A stretch of 35,340 nt of DNA. Source: a virus. The stretch spans positions 1 through 35,340 of the IMG/VR virus record IMGVR_UViG_3300012002_000305, one strand, 5' to 3'. This document shows, piece after piece, positions 4,539-27,640 of the stretch (positions within the stretch are counted from its first letter, which is position 1; every line of letters begins with the position of its first letter). The position numbers were made by a program, and so were the translations under genes. Below the pieces are notes generated by a model. That model was not told the origin of the DNA. It searched no databases and worked only from the letters and a program-made list of their open reading frames with translations.

Positions 4539-5327
4539 TCAGAAGTCAAACTTAGCTTTTAGTATTCTCGCATCTCGTTTGGAAAGCTGCGGCTCTAGCG
4601 TATCCCAATGCTCTTTAACAAGAGAGCCTACAAGATTACGTTCATCACGAGATAGCTTTACGCTATACCGCTCGTGACGTTCCCATGCATCGAAGGCCAT
4701 TGGTACAATTGGCTGAATCATATCAGCGATTGCTTCAGCGTAGTCTCGAATTTCTTTTTGAGCATGCTCATCCGTTCGAAGACGAAGAAAGTGAAATAGA
4801 TTATGAAGGTCGATATTCCAATAAAATTCTGTATAGACTGAAAGTGGGAGGTTAATGCGGGCTAGCTCGCGAGCTACGCCATTGTCAATATATTCCCCAT
4901 ACTGTGCCGCTGCATCATTTTGCTCAGCGAGCATATGTTGTAACATAACTTCGTTGTTATGGGGATCATAACCCTCCTCAGAGCCCTGGTGATCTCCTTT
5001 TGCCTGGATACGGAGCTCTTCAGGAAGGAAAAACTCAGTATCCAACTCAACATAGCGACCGGAGATTTCGTTCATTCGCGCCGTGCGGTGTCGTACCCAT
5101 TGACGGGCAACAAAAATAGGCATTTTGAGATGAAACGTGAACAGTACCTGCTCAAATGGAGACGAATGGCTATTACGCATGAGAAAGTCAATCAAGCCAG
5201 CGTCTTGTTTTGGTGTCTTTGTGCCTTGGTTCGTTGAAATACGAGCTGAAGTGACGATACGCTCATCATCACCCATATGATCGACAAGCTTCACAAAGCC
5301 ATTTGTGTGTACAGTGGTAGTAGCCAT
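4539..5327 (-). CDS. thyX: Flavin-dependent thymidylate synthase ThyX
   Basis: 262 aa. Makes dTMP from dUMP using methylene-tetrahydrofolate, FAD and NADPH. The ThyX signature RHR-x4-NE-x-S-x-RY is present at residues 79-92, preceded by the FAD- and dUMP-binding helix (MPIFVARQWV) and followed by the usual LRxDxHAQxEIR motif. Full length compared with bacterial ThyX. AGAGG lies upstream of ATG 5327. With the B12-dependent ribonucleotide reductase and thioredoxin it forms a deoxynucleotide supply set. Confidence 0.97.
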   Translation of the reverse strand: MATTTVHTNGFVKLVDHMGDDERIVTSARISTNQGTKTPKQDAGLIDFLMRNSHSSPFEQVLFTFHLKMPIFVARQWVRHRTARMNEISGRYVELDTEFFLPEELRIQAKGDHQGSEEGYDPHNNEVMLQHMLAEQNDAAAQYGEYIDNGVARELARINLPLSVYTEFYWNIDLHNLFHFLRLRTDEHAQKEIRDYAEAIADMIQPIVPMAFDAWERHERYSVKLSRDERNLVGSLVKEHWDTLEPQLSKRDARILKAKFDF

Positions 5328-6745: not shown

Positions 6746-8329
6746 TTACTTTTTCTTGCGAGATGGTACTGCAATTGGGTACTCTTCAATCGTATGAATG
6801 AGAGCCTCACGATCCTGCTCGGTTACATCTAGGATGTCGAAGATCTTCTCAGACCAACCAGCAAGCGCAATTACCTTTCCATCGTTCTCAGGTACCTGCA
6901 TTGACCCATGACCATGAAGGTCGAATGAGTACACGAATGGATTAGCCTTACTACGTGACTTGTATGCATCCAATGCACTTCGAGGATGGTCGTATGACTG
7001 CATCCATGCCTGCATATCGCTAAGAATAAAGATACGATCGTAATGCGTATCCTTTGCAGTTTTGAATATGCTTTCGAAGTTTGTACCTCCACCCTTCTGT
7101 GTGATATCGCGTACCTGATCCAATGTTGATCGCGACTTAGGTACCGAAAGGTACTCAGCTGATGTGTTGAACGATATTACATCTGCATCAGTAGCTTTAC
7201 CAAGTGCGATTCCAAACAACGCTGCGATCTCAACCATTGTGGTTGAACCATTCTCCGACAATGGAGAGTGCATTGAGCCAGAGGTATCGATTGCAACCAA
7301 GGTCTTTCCATCAAGCTTTGGCAGGTTGGAAAGAGAGATTTCAATCGCTGTACCAAGCGCATCTACAAGTTTTGCAACACGACGCTTGTCATTGACACGA
7401 GACAACCTTGAATTGCTATGATAATACCAAAAGCTGTGACGTGGGGTGTCATCGATCTCGCTAAACGCTGTATACAGCTGGAACGGGAAGACCTTTGACC
7501 CCAAGATCAGCTTCTTATCCGTCAACAGTGAAAGCGCTACATCAAATGCTGCATCATCCACATCATTAGCGATGTTGACAAGGTTACGTACGAGTGCAAG
7601 ATAGCCGATCTTTTGCTCTAAGAGCAACTCAGCCCATGCATCCTGACGTGCCGCAGCCTTCTCAGTCTTGGAACCAGACTGACCGGCCTTTGAGATCTTT
7701 GCTTCCCACGTATTCTCATTCTTGAGGGTCCCATCAAGAAGAGCCTTCAGTGCCTTAGCGTTCTTCTTCGTTGGCTTTGGACGTACAAGACGAACAACGT
7801 CAACAAGCTTTACTGCCTTCTTCTCACCGCGGTACTTTGCAAGCTGGTACGCATCAAAGCGACCGATCGCTGAGGCGAATCCACGCTTCATTGCAGCAGG
7901 CAACGATGCATCTGGGTTGCTATCGAAGTAGTACCCCATGATCTCCATCATGTCATCAACACGATAGATGATTGCATCATAGAACACCTTACCCCAATCG
8001 GTACCAGACGTGATGTTCTGTGTCGCCATTTCCCCTGCCACAAGATGTGACATTGTGCGCATACCAAACTCATTACGAGCATAGAGTGCAGCTTTTGCGA
8101 GAAATGCTGTGTCATCAATTTGAGCAACAAGGTCCTGTACGCGCTTCAGAACTTGCTTCTGAGAACGATACATGTCACCTGCGAGGAAGTTAGAGAGCAG
8201 TAGGTTCACAAGCTCAAGCTTTGGGCTCTGAGCGTATGCTGCTCCGCCGGCGTCGTTGGATACAACGCGTGTTGCAACTGCGTTCGAAGACTTCGATCGA
8301 GCTGCTGTGGAATTTGAAAAACGTGCCAT
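6746..8329 (-). CDS. rsr: Ro60/Rsr-like TROVE-domain RNA-binding protein
   Basis: 527 aa, near the length of animal Ro60 and bacterial Rsr. The N-terminal two thirds (about 30-330) is the helical TROVE ring that binds Y RNA on its surface and misfolded RNA ends in its central hole. The C-terminal third is a von Willebrand A domain with an intact MIDAS motif DTSGS (348-352). In bacteria Rsr works with Y RNAs and exonucleases in rRNA maturation and RNA quality control. Structured RNA candidates lie on both sides (6541-6692 and 8877-8997). The start follows AAGGAGG. The 5' leader carries a CCCCTG/CAGGGG hairpin and a TATATTAT-rich promoter-like stretch. Confidence 0.92.
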   Translation of the reverse strand: MARFSNSTAARSKSSNAVATRVVSNDAGGAAYAQSPKLELVNLLLSNFLAGDMYRSQKQVLKRVQDLVAQIDDTAFLAKAALYARNEFGMRTMSHLVAGEMATQNITSGTDWGKVFYDAIIYRVDDMMEIMGYYFDSNPDASLPAAMKRGFASAIGRFDAYQLAKYRGEKKAVKLVDVVRLVRPKPTKKNAKALKALLDGTLKNENTWEAKISKAGQSGSKTEKAAARQDAWAELLLEQKIGYLALVRNLVNIANDVDDAAFDVALSLLTDKKLILGSKVFPFQLYTAFSEIDDTPRHSFWYYHSNSRLSRVNDKRRVAKLVDALGTAIEISLSNLPKLDGKTLVAIDTSGSMHSPLSENGSTTMVEIAALFGIALGKATDADVISFNTSAEYLSVPKSRSTLDQVRDITQKGGGTNFESIFKTAKDTHYDRIFILSDMQAWMQSYDHPRSALDAYKSRSKANPFVYSFDLHGHGSMQVPENDGKVIALAGWSEKIFDILDVTEQDREALIHTIEEYPIAVPSRKKK

Positions 8330-9006: not shown

Positions 9007-9678
9007 CTATGTTACTGACTTGACTGAAGACTTATCCTTTCGTGTCTTTCGAGCCTTATCCATATAATCAGTTAGTGTCTCGTTACCGTCCTTGTGCGAT
9101 CGTGTGTCTGATACAAAGTTTGCAACTGAGGCGTAAAGAGTCTGCGTACCTACTGCAGATGGATCATACTGAGCGGTATTCACTGCTGCAAACCCCATAT
9201 TACCACCCTCAGCGAAGGCGTCAATGTTAGCGCCTAGGAATAGGAACTTCCAATTGAAATCCTTTTCTTGGGTATCAACCATCTTCTTGATAGAGTCAGC
9301 TGTGAACTCCTGAGAGCTGTTCTCTGCTCCATCAGTAGTGATCACTACAATCACCTGTTCAGGACGCTCGGCTTCCTCGGTCTTAGACAAACGCTCACCA
9401 ACTGTGTTAATCGTTTTACCGACGGCGTCAAGAAGAGCCGTCATTCCTCGTGCAAAATATTCATTCTTGGTTAGCTTTGGTACTGTACGTAGGTCTACTC
9501 CATCGTGGAGAACCTCGTACTGATCATCAAAGAGAACAGTTGTGAGCTTGCACTCACCTGCTTCTTGTCGTTGTTGATCAATGAAGCTATTGAATCCACC
9601 AATTGTGTCTTCGGTGAGGTTAGCCATTGATCCACTACGATCAAGAATAAAAATAACTTCAGTCAAATCCTTTTTCAT
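9007..9678 (-). CDS. vWA-domain protein (MIDAS intact)
   Basis: 223 aa, essentially one von Willebrand A domain. The MIDAS motif D13-R-S-G-S17 follows strand VIFIL. A second metal-ligand segment (FARGMTALLDAVG) and strand VIVVITTDGAENSS are in the usual order. It lacks the HEAT-like TROVE region of the nearby Ro60 protein, so it is not a Ro60 copy. Strong Shine-Dalgarno (AAGGAG). Ligand unknown. Confidence 0.85.
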   Translation of the reverse strand: MKKDLTEVIFILDRSGSMANLTEDTIGGFNSFIDQQRQEAGECKLTTVLFDDQYEVLHDGVDLRTVPKLTKNEYFARGMTALLDAVGKTINTVGERLSKTEEAERPEQVIVVITTDGAENSSQEFTADSIKKMVDTQEKDFNWKFLFLGANIDAFAEGGNMGFAAVNTAQYDPSAVGTQTLYASVANFVSDTRSHKDGNETLTDYMDKARKTRKDKSSVKSVT

Positions 9679-21432: not shown

Positions 21433-21506
21433 AGCGCCTAACCGGATTCGAACCGGTACCGTCAGCTTGGAAGGCTGTCATGCTAGCCATTAAACACCAT
21501 AGGCGC
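21433..21506 (-). tRNA. tRNA-Gly(TCC)
   Basis: Anticodon loop CTTCCAA, acceptor GCGCCTA/TAGGCGC, T-arm ACCGG-TTCGAAT-CCGGT. The outermost anticodon-stem pair is A-A. Confidence 0.88.
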
Positions 21507-21514
21507 AAAAGCGA

Positions 21515-21678
21515 TGTAGTGCGACGTGCGCTTGACGCGATTTGAGGTACACACTACATCTACGGATTATGATCTGATGTGGCTCTTCAACTACCCATGC
21601 GTGGGGAATTCGCCGTGCCCTCGGCTCTCGTCAAAGCATCAGTACCATTGCCCCTTGACCGTAGGGGTTGGATTTTTC
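21515..21678 (-). other. Structured spacer RNA region
   Basis: Perfect 9-bp helix GATGTAGTG/CACTACATC enclosing about 30 bases, plus CCCCT-ACGGTCA-AGGGG, GCCG/CGGC and CCCA/TGGG hairpins. No coding frame. Possibly a small RNA or a processing spacer. Confidence 0.35.
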
Positions 21679-21679
21679 G

Positions 21680-21754
21680 TACTCTGAGTGAGATTCGAAC
21701 TCACACTGAATAGGGTCTAGGCCTATTGCCTCTGCCAGATTGGGCTACCAGAGC
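21680..21754 (-). tRNA. tRNA-Leu(TAG), short variable loop
   Basis: Anticodon stem ATAGG/CCTAT with loop CCTAGAC (anticodon TAG), acceptor GCTCTGG/TCAGAGT, D-arm GCC..GGCAGAGGC and variable region of five bases (TCAGT). A normal long-arm tRNA-Leu(TAG) also exists at 21909. Confidence 0.75.
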
Positions 21755-21761
21755 ATAAAAA

Positions 21762-21904
21762 GAAGGGAACCATTGAAGTTCGTGTTTTTCGCGTGCTGCC
21801 ATTACACTACACCCCTGTGCTAACTTTCCAATTTATAGGGGTGGAGGGATTCGAACCCTCTCTTCGTCGTTGATAATCGAAGTAACGACCTTCATCACCG
21901 CTTC
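21762..21904 (-). tRNA. Circularly permuted tRNA in RNA scaffold (anticodon unresolved)
   Basis: Order on the minus strand: T-arm GAGGG-TTCGAAT-CCCTC (21860-21844), acceptor 3' strand CACCCCT (21843-21837), A73 at 21836, a 19-nt spacer, acceptor 5' strand AGGGGTG (21816-21810), TA, D-arm GTG-TAATGGCA-GCAC (21807-21793). All seven acceptor pairs are perfect, and the D-arm is identical to that of tRNA-Gln. Outer helix GAAG/CTTC, loop CGGTGAT opposite AATGGTTCC, inner helix GAAG-g-TCGT with ACGA-a-CTTC. The region between inner helix and T-arm also forms GTCGTT/AACGAC. I cannot identify a standard anticodon loop. Confidence 0.7.
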
Positions 21905-21908
21905 TTAG

Positions 21909-21991
21909 TGCTCCCGGTGGGAATCGAACCCACACTCCCGAAGGAACTAGATCCTAAATCTAGCGCGTCTGCCTAATTCCGCCACGGAAGC
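21909..21991 (-). tRNA. tRNA-Leu(TAG), class II
   Basis: Anticodon stem CTAGA/TCTAG with loop TTTAGGA, long variable arm (TCC-TTCG-GGA) and acceptor GCTTCCG/CGGGAGC. Canonical tRNA-Leu. Confidence 0.94.
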
Positions 21992-22052
21992 ATATGGTTG
22001 CAGGTGAGGTCGTTAACCTACTTTGCCGACATTCAACGGCGCTGCAACGTTG

Positions 22053-22127
22053 TACTCCGGGAGGGATTCGAACCCTCACTATACTGGGCTTAAACCAGCC
22101 GCCTCTGCCTGATTGGGCTACCGGAGC
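22053..22127 (-). tRNA. tRNA-Leu(TAA), short variable loop
   Basis: Anticodon stem GCTGG/CCAGT with loop TTTAAGC (anticodon TAA), acceptor GCTCCGG/CCGGAGT, D-arm GCCC..GGCAGAGGC, five-base variable region ATAGT. Confidence 0.78.
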
Positions 22128-22129
22128 AT

Positions 22130-22320
22130 GTAGCAGGTTTTCGTACTGCCTAAGCATCGTATCTCAGTTTCCAACGAACCTTCCGAGACGTGTGCTCATA
22201 CGCTCCTATTCTTTAATTATTTCCGACATCGACAGTTTCGGAGTCTGCTATCGACGAAGGCGAGATCCACCGCAGTTATTTGTGACACAACATACGCAGT
22301 GGCTTACGTATGTTGTATTG
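22130..22320 (-). other. Structured spacer RNA region
   Basis: Perfect 10-bp hairpin ACAACATACG/CGTATGTTGT with a 10-base loop (about 22288-22317), TCCGA/TCGGA and CGTCTC..GAGATACG pairings, and a GCAG/CTGC stem. No coding frame found. Confidence 0.35.
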
Positions 22321-22324
22321 TCGA

Positions 22325-22405
22325 TGGGCGAGGTGGGACTTGAACCCACATACCCGAAGGCCACGGTTTTACAGACCGCTGAGCGACCAATTGCTCAACT
22401 CGCCC
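22325..22405 (-). tRNA. tRNA-Tyr(GTA)
   Basis: Class II tRNA with anticodon loop CTGTAAA, variable arm with TTCG loop, acceptor GGGCGAG/CTCGCCC and T-loop TTCAAGT. Confidence 0.95.
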
Positions 22406-22412
22406 AAATAAA

Positions 22413-22482
22413 GGAGAGGAAACTTGAAGGCCGCGTTTTTCAAAATAAATGGTTTCGATGTAACGGCCATCATCACTGCTCC
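22413..22482 (-). ncRNA. Stand-alone scaffold RNA element (copy A)
   Basis: Outer helix GGAG/CTCC (22482-22479 with 22416-22413), 5' loop CAGTGAT, inner helix GATGGCCG/CGGCCTTC (one mismatch) and 3' loop AAGTTTCCT. The interior carries GTTACATCGA and TGAAAAAC, shared with the other copies. No tRNA sequence inside. Followed by TTTATTT. Confidence 0.6.
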
Positions 22483-22499
22483 TATGTTATCAAAATAAA

Positions 22500-22563
22500 G
22501 AAGGGAAATATTGAAGTGCGTGTGTTTTCACCTAATCGAAGTAACGCTCTTCTTCACCGCTTC
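22500..22563 (-). ncRNA. Stand-alone scaffold RNA element (copy B)
   Basis: Outer helix GAAG/CTTC (22563-22560 with 22503-22500), loop CGGTGAA opposite AATATTTCC, inner helix GAAG-a-GCGT with ACGC-a-CTTC. The interior TTACTTCGATTA is identical to that of the permuted tRNA at 21762-21904. Followed by TTTATTTTG. First RNA after the promoter at 22569-22597. Confidence 0.6.
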
Positions 22564-22568
22564 TATCT

Positions 22569-22597
22569 ATAATATACTGTTGCCTCTTGCAAGGCAA
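22569..22597 (-). promoter_or_regulatory. Sigma70-like promoter TTGCCT-N17-TATTAT
   Basis: Immediately downstream of tRNA-Cys and upstream of scaffold copies B and A and tRNA-Tyr. The -35 hexamer is part of an inverted repeat TTGCCT-TGCAAG-AGGCAA that could be an operator. Confidence 0.65.
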
Positions 22598-22670
22598 AGA
22601 CCCCGGTGGGTGTTGATCCCACTAATACTGGTTTTGCAGACCAGCGCGTTTCCCGATTCGCCACGGAGTC
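22598..22670 (-). tRNA. tRNA-Cys(GCA) with atypical T-loop
   Basis: Anticodon stem CTGGT/ACCAG with loop CTGCAAA, acceptor GACTCCG/CGGGGTC. The T-loop is ATCAACA instead of TTCRANN, so position 54 is A and the usual T54-A58 reverse-Hoogsteen pair cannot form. The D-arm is of class II style (GCG/CGC). Confidence 0.8.
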
Positions 22671-22828: not shown

Positions 22829-22829
22829 G

Positions 22830-22958
22830 TATGAGGAGCGCCCTTTCTACCGAGATCTTGCTTATGACCATGGTACCCTACCCATAAGTCCTGCCTTGGT
22901 AGCGGGGTAACCTTGCTCCTCGACCTACCCCGGCCTTTCGCATACGTCTATGCGTTTT
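22830..22958 (-). other. Structured spacer RNA region
   Basis: Contains CGCATA-GACG-TATGCG, CGGGGTA/TACCCCG and CTTATG/CATAAG helices. No coding frame. Confidence 0.3.
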
Positions 22959-22959
22959 A

Positions 22960-23034
22960 TGGACCGAGAGGGAATCGAACCCTCCACATTCTCCTTGCAA
23001 GGGAGAATCGCCAAGCCTTGGTACATTCCAGCCC
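22960..23034 (-). tRNA. tRNA-Ala(TGC)
   Basis: Anticodon stem TCTCC/GGAGA with loop CTTGCAA. Acceptor GGGCTGG/TCGGTCC relies on several G-U pairs, and the D-stem is weak. Confidence 0.8.
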
Positions 23035-23039
23035 GTAAA

Positions 23040-23235
23040 GTTCCCTGAAAGCCACGATGGCGTACCCAACGCGCGGGCTTTCTTGATGCTAGGCAGGAGA
23101 ACGCTACCTATTCAGTTTTCTTTGTAGTTCCCCGGGTTTTACGCGTTCGGGGTTACTACGGGAAACTACTGCCCATAACTGTGACGCGGTCGGTAACGCT
23201 GACAAACGCTCTCATCACCCTGAGAGTAGGGTGGG
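23040..23235 (-). other. Structured spacer RNA region
   Basis: Helices GTAGTT-TCCC with GGGG-AACTAC, CTCTCA-GGGTGA-TGAGAG, TAGGTAG/CTGCCTA and GAAAGCC/GGCTTTC (the last enclosing GCGT-TGGGT-ACGC). The segment GGGTGATGAGAGCGTT resembles the 5' part of the scaffold elements, but the 3' partner is unclear. Confidence 0.35.
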
Positions 23236-23239
23236 TAAT

Positions 23240-23616: not shown

Positions 23617-23688
23617 TTTAGGCAATGGGATTTGAACCCATGTTTCCCTCTTATATGAGGGCGTCCTAAGCCTCTAGACGATACCCAA
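23617..23688 (-). tRNA. tRNA with 6-base anticodon loop (identity unclear)
   Basis: Acceptor TTGGGTA/TGCCTAA, D-arm GTCT/GGAC of Glu-like form, T-arm ATGGG-TTCAAAT-CCCAT. The anticodon stem CCCTC/GAGGG encloses only ATATAA, one base short. TAT (Ile) would be the central triplet if position 33 is missing. Confidence 0.65.
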
Positions 23689-25099: not shown

Positions 25100-25804
25100 T
25101 TATCTTTCCTCTCGTTCGAGGGCATTCAATGTGATGAACGGCGCCTCTACAAACGACTGATGTAAGGTGTGCCAACCTTGCTCAGCGTCATACCGTAACG
25201 TGGTACCGAGCTTCCATCGATCATGCAAACTCTCCCAATGCTCTCCTCGTTGAGCACACATCTCAATCATTTCTTGTCTATTCTTTCCATGTAGCTCTTT
25301 CGGTGAGAAGTGAGCTTGCGCAAGCATTGCTACCGAGTTACGCTCCCAATCCTTCTGTCTCCAGATGAAATAATTGTTCACCTCTTCTTCAGGAATATTG
25401 AATGCTCGACTATCAAACATCGCCAGTTGGGATGTCTCAATAATGCGATTGAAGTGTGCAGTCGCGATTGATGCAGTAACACTCACGACCTTCTGTACTG
25501 CATAATCATACCATGCAGCTGTATCGAACTTGTTGTAGTCGTGAAGTAAGAGTGAGATCTCATCAGATTGAACATATGCTAATCTGGCACCCGCAATTTC
25601 TTCGCACAATGCCCTCGCTGTCTCAATCATCGCATCAGATAATATCTCCGAAAATGGAGAGTGAAACTGACGTGTAAATGTATGAAAAGCACGGCCATCT
25701 AAACGTACGATGACAGGGGTACGTCTAGTGAGATATGTTTTAGACCGATCTTCATAATTTTCTCGAATCCGATCACCAAGAGGCTTTCTTTGTTTCGCAC
25801 TCAT
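25100..25804 (-). CDS. Thg1-like 3'-5' nucleotide-adding enzyme (TLP)
   Basis: 234 aa. Thg1 enzymes add nucleotides to RNA 5' ends in the 3'-to-5' direction. The eukaryotic type adds G-1 to tRNA-His, while bacterial TLPs repair truncated tRNA 5' ends by templated addition. Metal-binding motif RLDGRAFH (34-41; D36) and second acidic pair YVQSDEISLLL (D81, E82) match the polymerase-like palm. NNYFIWRQKDWERN (143-156) is the family signature. Full-length TLP size. In operon with pncB (15-base gap). Likely substrates are the many phage tRNAs, several with weak 5' acceptor strands (inference). Confidence 0.93.
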   Translation of the reverse strand: MSAKQRKPLGDRIRENYEDRSKTYLTRRTPVIVRLDGRAFHTFTRQFHSPFSEILSDAMIETARALCEEIAGARLAYVQSDEISLLLHDYNKFDTAAWYDYAVQKVVSVTASIATAHFNRIIETSQLAMFDSRAFNIPEEEVNNYFIWRQKDWERNSVAMLAQAHFSPKELHGKNRQEMIEMCAQRGEHWESLHDRWKLGTTLRYDAEQGWHTLHQSFVEAPFITLNALEREER

Positions 25805-25818
25805 CCCTTTTATCCAAT

Positions 25819-26997
25819 CTACTTATCTGTAATATGAAATACAGTTTTCAGGTACTGTAAGTACCCTTCATCGTTACACATACCCTTACCCGGAGAGTCC
25901 GAGATCTTCGCTACTGGACGTTCGTTCACTTCTGTCAGCTTCATAACTATCTGCAAAGGTGTCGTACCTTCGAAATCGTTAGTGAGATTAGTCCCAATAC
26001 CAAACGATATGTGCGCACGATCTTTGAAATGTTCGTAAATGCGAAAAGCTGTCTGAAAGTCTAATCCATCGGAAAAAACAAGTGTCTTAGTTTTCGGATC
26101 AATACGAAGCTTCTTATAGTGTGCGATGACCTTCTCTCCCCATTCAAATGGATCACCGCTATCATGCCGTAGCCCGTCATAGAGCTTTGCAAAATAGAGA
26201 TCAAAGTCTGCGAGAAAAGCATCGATGCCTACTGTATCGGTAAGCGCTATTCCTAGGTCACCTCGATACTCGTCAACCCAAGATTGAAGCATCGCCTTTT
26301 GGCTGTTACGAACGGGTACATCCTCTCGTGCTTGTCCTACCATCATAAATTCGTGAGCCATCGTGCCGACCGGTCGAATATTGAACTGACGAGCGAGATC
26401 TACGTTTGATGTACCTGTAAACGTCGGTAGGCTCATTAGCGTACGAATGACTGTACGATGCCAGTCCCTAGAGAATCTACGTCGAGTACCGAAATCAGCG
26501 AACGGTAACTTGCTATCACGGTAAGCTGTGCGCTTGCTATCTAATAGCATTTGAGCGAGATTCTTGCTGTGTTCAAGACCCCCGGGGACATCAGGAGGAT
26601 TGTGACGAAAATAAACTTCATTCACAATTGCTAGCACCGGCACTTCAAACGGAATGGTCAAGTACCATGGTCCACGAACTGTGATCTTTAGGTTTGACCC
26701 ATCAAGATAAGCTGAAATATGATCAGCGTTAGGCTGGTACAGTGATAGGAAGTCTACGTAATCTTTCGAAAAGAAACGGATTGAACGCAAGTATTGTAAT
26801 TCGGACTCCGTGAATCGCAATGTACAGTAATGCTCAATCTCAGAGTGAATATCATTGAGAATTGCTTGAGTGAAGATCGCCTCATTTCGGCACTGAAACT
26901 CATAATTCACATCAACTGTCGGAAATTGATGTAGTGCGACTTGTTGCTGCGTGAGCTTGTATAAATCAGTATCTAGTAAGCTCTGTATGATTGGCAT
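25819..26997 (-). CDS. pncB: Nicotinate phosphoribosyltransferase
   Basis: 392 aa. Converts nicotinate plus PRPP to nicotinate mononucleotide in the Preiss-Handler NAD pathway. Seen: N-terminal SLLDTDLYKLTQQQ, PVLAIVNE, FGTRRRFS and the catalytic-His segment GTMAHEF (cf. phospho-His of bacterial PncB), then DSGDPFEWGEK and the phosphate loop GIGTNLTNDF. The start is ATG 26997 after GGAGG; the four-codon longer start would bury the Shine-Dalgarno. It directly follows nicotinamidase, so the pair turns nicotinamide into NaMN. NadD and NadE must come from the host or elsewhere. Confidence 0.95.
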   Translation of the reverse strand: MPIIQSLLDTDLYKLTQQQVALHQFPTVDVNYEFQCRNEAIFTQAILNDIHSEIEHYCTLRFTESELQYLRSIRFFSKDYVDFLSLYQPNADHISAYLDGSNLKITVRGPWYLTIPFEVPVLAIVNEVYFRHNPPDVPGGLEHSKNLAQMLLDSKRTAYRDSKLPFADFGTRRRFSRDWHRTVIRTLMSLPTFTGTSNVDLARQFNIRPVGTMAHEFMMVGQAREDVPVRNSQKAMLQSWVDEYRGDLGIALTDTVGIDAFLADFDLYFAKLYDGLRHDSGDPFEWGEKVIAHYKKLRIDPKTKTLVFSDGLDFQTAFRIYEHFKDRAHISFGIGTNLTNDFEGTTPLQIVMKLTEVNERPVAKISDSPGKGMCNDEGYLQYLKTVFHITDK

Positions 26998-27025
26998 ATT
27001 GGCCTCCATATATAATATGGAAAGG

Positions 27026-27640
27026 CTACTCTATAGGCCTAACAGCTGTTTTGGTAGGTCGTACAGTAACGCCCATGGCGACCATATCATGAAGTGTATG
27101 AAGCCCTGCGTCACTGTTCACCGCGGCGACAGCATCAGAGAAGACAGTGATCTTCTTATATCCCAGATTGTGTGCATCATCAACGGTGCTCCATACACAG
27201 ACATCGGTAGCAATACCTACTACATGTAGTTCAGAATTTTTTGGAATGAGCCGCGCTAGTCCTGTTTCGGTCTTTTTGTCATTTTCGAGAAATGCTGAGT
27301 AAGAGTCTGTGTCTACATGCATTCCCTTGCGAACGATGTACTGGATGGGTCGCTGATCGAGATCTTCATGAAGCTTTGCTCCGTGAGTGCCTTGTACGCA
27401 GTGATCAGGCCAAGCTGTTTGCTTGAGCTCATTTATATAGGTGAATGGGGCTACCTCATGTGTCGAAGCAAAAGATACATGGCCTACTGGGTGCCAGTCC
27501 TGTGTTGCAATGACTAGATCATATGTATTAGAAGTTAAAAGCTCATTGATGACAGGTATGATATCAGCGCCATGCCGAACCGCTAGTGCACCATCGGGAC
27601 AGAAATCATTCTGTACATCGACAATTAGTAAAGTCTTCAT
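27026..27640 (-). CDS. pncA: Nicotinamidase (PncA-like)
   Basis: 204 aa isochorismatase-fold hydrolase that deamidates nicotinamide to nicotinate. Catalytic triad D8 (LIVDVQNDF), K105 (VRKGMHVD) and C148 (GIATDVCV). Metal ligands D48, H50 and H80 are in the TQDWHP and WPDHCVQGT segments. Coupled to pncB by a short gap. Lacks a strong Shine-Dalgarno. Could salvage NAD breakdown products during infection (inference). Confidence 0.95.
   Translation of the reverse strand: MKTLLIVDVQNDFCPDGALAVRHGADIIPVINELLTSNTYDLVIATQDWHPVGHVSFASTHEVAPFTYINELKQTAWPDHCVQGTHGAKLHEDLDQRPIQYIVRKGMHVDTDSYSAFLENDKKTETGLARLIPKNSELHVVGIATDVCVWSTVDDAHNLGYKKITVFSDAVAAVNSDAGLHTLHDMVAMGVTVRPTKTAVRPIE

What the first reader, a model, noticed from the sequence alone, without database searches (positions are those of the whole stretch)
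22413..22563. Tandem cargo-free scaffold elements behind their own promoter
Copies B and A follow a TTGCCT-N17-TATTAT promoter (22569-22597) and contain no tRNA. Copy B shares the interior TTACTTCGATTA with the permuted tRNA at 21762. These could be the ancestral or catalytic form of the element, or an empty form from which the tRNA was lost.
Basis: seen in the sequence. Interest (0 to 1): 0.7.

Follow-up and report, generated by a model that had tools for sequence, protein, structure and literature searches.

The report
Phage Y RNAs without tRNA modules
The two small elements are very probably Y RNAs, structured RNAs that dock on the ring-shaped Ro (Rsr/Ro60) protein that this phage also encodes, in a minimal form that lacks the tRNA-like domain which bacterial Y RNAs usually carry.

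Summary
Copies B (22499-22564, -) and A (22412-22483, -) are minimal Y RNAs. The phage encodes a Ro60/Rsr protein (6746-8329, -; Pfam TROVE E=1.3e-19, vWA_Ro60 4.6e-9). In other Ro-encoding phages, YrlA-type Y RNAs lie beside the Ro gene and share one covarying terminal domain: 5-bp outer stem, 7-nt loop (GGUG-type), 8-bp inner stem, UUACUUC; then inner stem, 9-nt loop ending UUCC, outer stem. A covariance model of that domain, built without any window sequence, gives B and A as its two best window hits (E=1.8e-8 and 9.5e-4). A full-length model finds the 'permuted tRNA' (T, 21761-21905) at E=2.9e-18: it is a YrlA-type Y RNA, whose tRNA-like module is known to be circularly permuted. Two further copies, U (16090-16221) and V (16386-16515), are probable. 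Module-less Y RNAs recur in other Ro phages, including tandem copies right after a Ro gene, so A and B are not random decay. The promoter is a 9/12 match, no commoner than in shuffles. Identity is strong; Ro binding, and gating rather than tethering by A and B, is inference. New member of a known kind.

The parts
22499..22564 (-). Element B: minimal Y RNA. Outer stem 22564-22560/22503-22499, 5' internal loop CGGUGAA 22559-22553, inner stem 22552-22545/22520-22513 (one A.A mismatch), conserved UUACUUCG 22544-22537, 16-nt loop, 3' internal loop AAUAUUUCC 22512-22504
   Evidence: Best window hit of model R1 (built from other phages only), 35.0 bits, E=1.8e-8; score 35.1 against shuffle maximum 24.0
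22412..22483 (-). Element A: minimal Y RNA. Outer stem 22483-22479/22416-22412, internal loop CAGUGAU, inner stem 22471-22464/22433-22426, UUACAUCG, 22-nt loop, 3' internal loop AAGUUUCCU
   Evidence: Second window hit of R1, 19.7 bits, E=9.5e-4; folding z-score -3.3
21761..21905 (-). Element T ('permuted tRNA'): YrlA-type Y RNA with T arm - closed acceptor - D arm module and no anticodon arm
   Evidence: Full-length model R2 (no window sequence), 75.3 bits, E=2.9e-18; same segment order as Rfam YrlA RF02553
16090..16221 (-). Element U: probable YrlA-type Y RNA; module also carries an anticodon-like arm (ACUGU CUGAAAA ACAGU)
   Evidence: R2 31.5 bits, E=1.5e-6; RF02553 full length but only 16.9 bits; Ro-domain score 24.3. 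tRNA junctions reach similar R2 scores in other loci, so graded probable
16386..16515 (-). Element V: probable Y-RNA stem enclosing a complete, normal-order tRNA-Ile(GAU) (16421-16495)
   Evidence: Ro-domain score 21.6; scores of 20 or more occur 0.2 times per shuffled window; MFE fold forms both stems
6746..8329 (-). Ro60/Rsr ortholog, 527 aa, the likely protein partner
   Evidence: PF05731 TROVE E=1.3e-19, PF25045 vWA_Ro60 4.6e-9; PDB TROVE proteins 9l5y/9kop E=1.2e-26, D. radiodurans Rsr 2nvo 9e-8; MIDAS residues DTSGSM...T...D present by inspection
22569..22597 (-). Promoter-like TTGCCT-N17-TATTAT in front of B, overlapping a hairpin after tRNA-Cys
   Evidence: 9/12 match; 3 sites found against 2.5 expected: not above chance

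Best explanation
A and B are minimal Y RNAs of the phage's own Ro (Rsr) protein. They are probably transcribed with the tRNA cluster and released by the processing of the flanking tRNAs (A ends 5 nt before tRNA-Tyr; B starts after tRNA-Cys); an own start cannot be excluded. The terminal stem, with its two internal loops and the UUACUUC segment, docks on the outside of the Ro ring. Because A and B lack the tRNA-like module that reaches effectors such as PNPase, they most likely act as gates or place-holders: they occupy Ro, stabilise it and control entry of other RNA to its central cavity, while T (and probably U and V) add a tRNA-like arm for tethering or mimicry. Shown: structure, family consensus, presence of Ro, genomic linkage of the same RNAs to Ro genes in other phages. 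Inferred: transcription, Ro binding, gating (about even odds as the specific mechanism), and any role in handling tRNAs damaged during infection.
For: Ro ortholog in the window. YrlA-like RNAs beside Ro genes in Olaya, CcrColossus, BRock, csAssE-Sib, matching Rfam YrlA at up to 50 bits, E=5e-12. Ro-domain model R1 without window sequences finds B and A as its two best window hits. Helices covary: 10 of 13 pairs with changes on both sides, 96.7% of cells paired against 62% in shuffles; the same with the window copies added. R1 hits in whole genomes cluster at Ro: Kikimora 3/3 within about 1 kb of Ro in 313 kb, viral contig L070/G001 3/3 just downstream of Ro (neither used in training). Module-less copies in Olaya (59 bits), LR745206, Atuin, BRock, phiLo, L070. 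The closest Ro relative, LR745206 (42% identity), has both kinds: a YrlA-type copy between tRNA-Ala and tRNA-Gly (69.1 bits) and a module-less one by tRNA-Trp.
Against: No expression or binding data. A is only moderately scored (E about 1e-3), and B's folding energy is not unusual for its composition (z -1.04). The Ro gene is 14 kb from A and B here, not adjacent. R1/R2 E-values are rough (short calibration). Rfam YrlA itself does not reach its cut-off on any phage copy tested. With stricter filters R1 missed many Ro phages, so the consensus does not cover all phage Y RNAs.
Confidence: 0.87

Rival explanations
1. A and B are decayed YrlA RNAs that lost the tRNA-like module and are on their way out (empty relics).
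For: B is nearly identical to T in the stem, so one may derive from the other; A is more divergent.
Against: Both stems and both internal-loop lengths are kept in exact register; module-less Y RNAs are a recurrent class in unrelated Ro phages, with three copies directly after a Ro gene in L070.
Confidence: 0.07
2. The elements are Y RNAs, but their main partner is a host Ro/Rsr: they act as decoys or recruiters of host Ro.
For: A YrlA-like RNA sits in Felixounavirus phages in which no Ro gene was found, so Y-type RNAs can occur in phages apart from Ro.
Against: This phage carries its own Ro gene with an apparently intact vWA site, and in other phages the RNAs lie next to the Ro gene.
Confidence: 0.1
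3. One reading: a tRNA-circularising or tRNA-splicing ribozyme/scaffold, with A and B its cargo-free catalytic form.
For: tRNA parts in permuted order inside the same scaffold (T).
Against: T lacks an anticodon arm; permuted order and closed acceptor are the normal anatomy of YrlA (PMC11472068); no ribozyme family matches.
Confidence: 0.02
4. Spacer hairpins that only serve tRNA processing in the polycistron.
For: They sit between tRNA genes.
Against: Conserved unpaired sequences and fixed loop lengths are shared with Ro-linked RNAs elsewhere, including Olaya, where no tRNA genes are annotated around them.
Confidence: 0.01

Closest known systems
Bacterial YrlA Y RNAs (Rfam RF02553; Salmonella YrlA, PDB 6CU1)
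   Same: Terminal stem formed by the 5' and 3' ends with two internal loops; T has the T arm - closed acceptor - D arm module in the same permuted order; Ro protein encoded in the same genome.
   Different: A and B lack the tRNA-like module; sequence is too divergent for the Rfam cut-off; genes lie in a phage tRNA cluster, not in an rsr-rtcBA operon.
Phage-encoded Ro and Y RNAs reported in mycobacteriophages (Chen 2014, as cited in PMC12282133) and TROVE proteins in jumbo phages (PMC7824862)
   Same: A phage genome with both a Ro protein and Y RNAs.
   Different: Here at least three (probably five) Y RNAs in one phage fragment, tandem module-less ones among them, hidden in a tRNA cluster away from the Ro gene.
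Metazoan Y RNAs (Rfam RF00019)
   Same: Ro-binding terminal stem with a variable loop and no tRNA module (analogy, from general knowledge).
   Different: No Rfam match; sequence of stem and internal loops differs.
Permuted tRNA genes of red algae and archaea
   Same: tRNA 3' part precedes 5' part in T.
   Different: No anticodon arm in T, no processing motif shown, and the order is that of YrlA.

Membership tests
Y RNA (Ro-binding RNA) | 5' and 3' ends form a stem with the family's internal loops and conserved segments | tested here: met
   R1, built from Ro-linked phage Y RNAs without the window: B 1.8e-8, A 9.5e-4; register identical
Y RNA (Ro-binding RNA) | Genome encodes a Ro/TROVE protein | tested here: met
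   6746-8329, PF05731 E=1.3e-19 and vWA_Ro60 4.6e-9
Y RNA (Ro-binding RNA) | Physically bound by Ro | not testable with these tools
   Needs EMSA or pull-down
YrlA (RF02553) | tRNA-like module (T arm, acceptor, D arm) between the strands of the stem | tested here: not met
   For A and B: none. For T: met (R2 75.3 bits). A and B are therefore not filed as YrlA
YrlA (RF02553) | Rfam gathering score 69 bits | tested here: not met
   Best window hit 16.9 bits (U); none of the phage copies tested reaches it
Permuted tRNA gene | Both tRNA parts including the anticodon arm, so that a full tRNA can be restored | tested here: not met
   T: T arm, acceptor and D arm only, no anticodon arm (sequence; alignment)
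Self-splicing or self-cleaving ribozyme | Match to a known ribozyme family | tested here: not met
   No ribozyme among Rfam matches up to E=10 in 21500-22620

The most novel reading that the evidence does not exclude
One phage carries a graded set of Y RNAs on a common Ro-binding stem: no module (A, B), a tRNA fold grafted at its anticodon end (T), at its variable loop with an anticodon-like arm kept (U), and at its acceptor end with a complete tRNA-Ile inside (V). The Ro ring would then be a swappable platform presenting alternative tRNA mimics, with A and B as the bare gate.
Probability: 0.4. Interest if true: 0.7.

Novelty: new member of a known kind. Interest (0 to 1): 0.52.

Why it matters
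It shows that unannotated gaps in phage tRNA clusters can hold Y RNAs, gives a compact consensus for finding them, and links 'permuted tRNA' sightings in such clusters to Ro biology. Minimal and tRNA-bearing Y RNAs side by side in one phage make it testable what the tRNA-like module adds to a Ro particle and why phages carry Ro at all, an open question.

Tried and rejected
Direct motif scan of viral contigs returned one coding family, unrelated. Nucleotide similarity to phages found only tRNA genes and chance matches. Close-relative scan with the Ro protein in viral contigs found none. Plus-strand look-alike at 21997-22050: not a hit of R1. Hammerhead, pistol, twister, HDV-like and group I readings were considered from the sequence; no Rfam support. 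Many partial RF02553/R2 hits in tRNA clusters are junctions of neighbouring tRNAs (T arm of one, D arm of the next) and were discarded by comparing with ARAGORN. A first alignment with length variants was misaligned at the 3' end and replaced by a gapless one. A second, broader motif scan gave 11 contigs of which only two (L070, L067) look like real Y RNAs. Promoter scan: chance level. Key papers (Chen 2014, Wang 2018, Sim & Wolin 2018, Sim 2020) could not be read here, so statements on them rest on citing papers.

Full report
Observation. On the minus strand of a phage tRNA cluster, between tRNA-Cys (22598) and tRNA-Tyr (22406), lie two related elements, B (22499-22564) and A (22412-22483), with no tRNA inside. 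B and the element at 21761-21905 (T) share both strands of the scaffold, and the core pattern is far beyond chance. The promoter-like string in front of B is a 9/12 match at chance level.

The clue. The window encodes a 527-aa protein with TROVE and Ro60 vWA domains (6746-8329), related to solved TROVE proteins and to D. radiodurans Rsr. Ro proteins bind Y RNAs, and the bacterial YrlA type carries a tRNA-like module. In matches to Rfam's YrlA model, T arms fall at positions 31-47 and D arms at 63-81, the very order seen in T; published structural comparison calls this a circular permutation of tRNA (PMC11472068; see also PMC8394870). So the 'permuted tRNA' is the expected anatomy of a YrlA RNA.

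Test on other phages. Phages with Ro relatives were fetched and searched with RF02553. YrlA-like RNAs lie directly beside the Ro gene: three in Xanthomonas phage Olaya (up to 50 bits, E=5e-12), three in CcrColossus, two in BRock, one in csAssE-Sib. Their terminal domain has one register: outer stem 5 bp, loop 7 nt (GGUG-type), inner stem 8 bp, UUACUUC, and on the 3' side inner stem, 9 nt ending UUCC, outer stem. Seven of them align without gaps once the module is cut out; 10 of 13 pairs show double changes and the covariation score is 1.04 against 0.27 in shuffles.

Held-out test on the window. A covariance model of this domain (R1, no window sequence) gives as its best window hits B (35.0 bits, E=1.8e-8) and A (19.7 bits, E=9.5e-4), with T third as a fragment at E=0.5 because the module interrupts it. 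An independent score that allows any loop of 8-130 nt puts T (35.4) and B (35.1) on top against a shuffle maximum of 24.0. A full-length model with the module (R2, no window sequence) finds T at 75.3 bits, E=2.9e-18, and U (16090-16221) at 31.5 bits. U is graded probable because tRNA junctions reach similar scores elsewhere. A looser scan adds V (16386-16515), a Y-type stem around a normal-order tRNA-Ile; csAssE-Sib offers a precedent with two annotated tRNAs inside such stems.

Module-less copies are a class. R1 finds short copies without a module in Olaya between YrlA-type copies (59 bits; this one was in the training set), in LR745206 (the closest Ro relative), Atuin, BRock, phiLo and CcrColossus, and three in tandem just after the Ro gene of viral contig L070. 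In whole genomes, all R1 hits of Kikimora (3) and of the L070 contig (3), neither used in training, lie next to Ro. This speaks against random decay of A and B.

Mechanism. Shown: the anatomy, the consensus, the Ro gene, the linkage elsewhere. Inferred: that A and B are made, bind the phage Ro, and act as gate or place-holder because they lack the module by which YrlA is reported to reach PNPase (PMC8394870). tRNA repair or decay during infection is a plausible setting: Salmonella rsr-yrlBA-rtcBA responds to tRNA fragments (PMC7790460), and jumbo-phage TROVE proteins have been placed among RNA repair systems (PMC7824862).

Comparison and novelty. Phage Ro proteins and Y RNAs have been reported (PMC7824862; PMC12282133 citing Chen 2014). 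A and B belong to the Y RNA kind by every feature testable here, but not to YrlA, since the module is absent. Not found in the literature I could read are the number and mixture in one phage, the compact consensus, and the possible alternative grafting of the tRNA fold.

Limits. The window is a 35-kb fragment; no expression or binding data; E-values from short calibration are rough; several primary papers could not be read.

Noticed in passing
window 16386-16515 (-) and 16090-16221 (-): V: tRNA-Ile(GAU), called by ARAGORN, sits in normal order inside a Y-RNA-like stem; U: YrlA-like with an extra anticodon-like arm. With T this suggests three graft points of the tRNA fold on one Ro stem.
   Followed up: partly
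L043 (csAssE-Sib OR575929) 4590-4735 and 4742-4880: The annotated tRNA-Tyr and tRNA-Lys lie in normal order inside Y-RNA stems with the full Ro-domain consensus, beside the Ro gene.
   Followed up: partly
L076 (Escherichia phage wV8) 4762-4927 (-): A YrlA-like RNA (T arm, acceptor, D arm, stem GACCGUU/AACGGUC) in Felixounavirus, found in 251 phage records; no Ro gene was found there by tblastn with the window Ro.
   Followed up: partly
L080 2685-2759 (Kikimora tRNA-Ser); L039 4044-4111 (CcrColossus tRNA-Gln): Annotated tRNAs overlap YrlA-type hits next to Ro (87.7 bits for Kikimora; RF02553 hit 109153-109249 in CcrColossus): probable mis-annotation of Y RNAs.
   Followed up: partly
window 25100-25804 (-): Thg1 (tRNA-His guanylyltransferase) homolog, E=3.8e-28; ARAGORN finds no tRNA-His in the window.
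   Followed up: no
window 25819-27640 (-): Nicotinate phosphoribosyltransferase (PF04095) next to an isochorismatase/nicotinamidase-like protein (PF00857): NAD salvage pair; cr111_1 also carries such a phosphoribosyltransferase gene near Ro.
   Followed up: no
window 21507-21678, 22829-22958, 23031-23239 (-): Further long, strongly folding gaps between tRNA genes that neither R1 nor Rfam explains; possibly other structured RNAs.
   Followed up: no
window 23617-23688 (-): ARAGORN calls a tRNA with an unreadable anticodon ('at').
   Followed up: no
window 9007-9678 (-): A second vWA-domain protein close to the Ro gene (weak PF13519).
   Followed up: no
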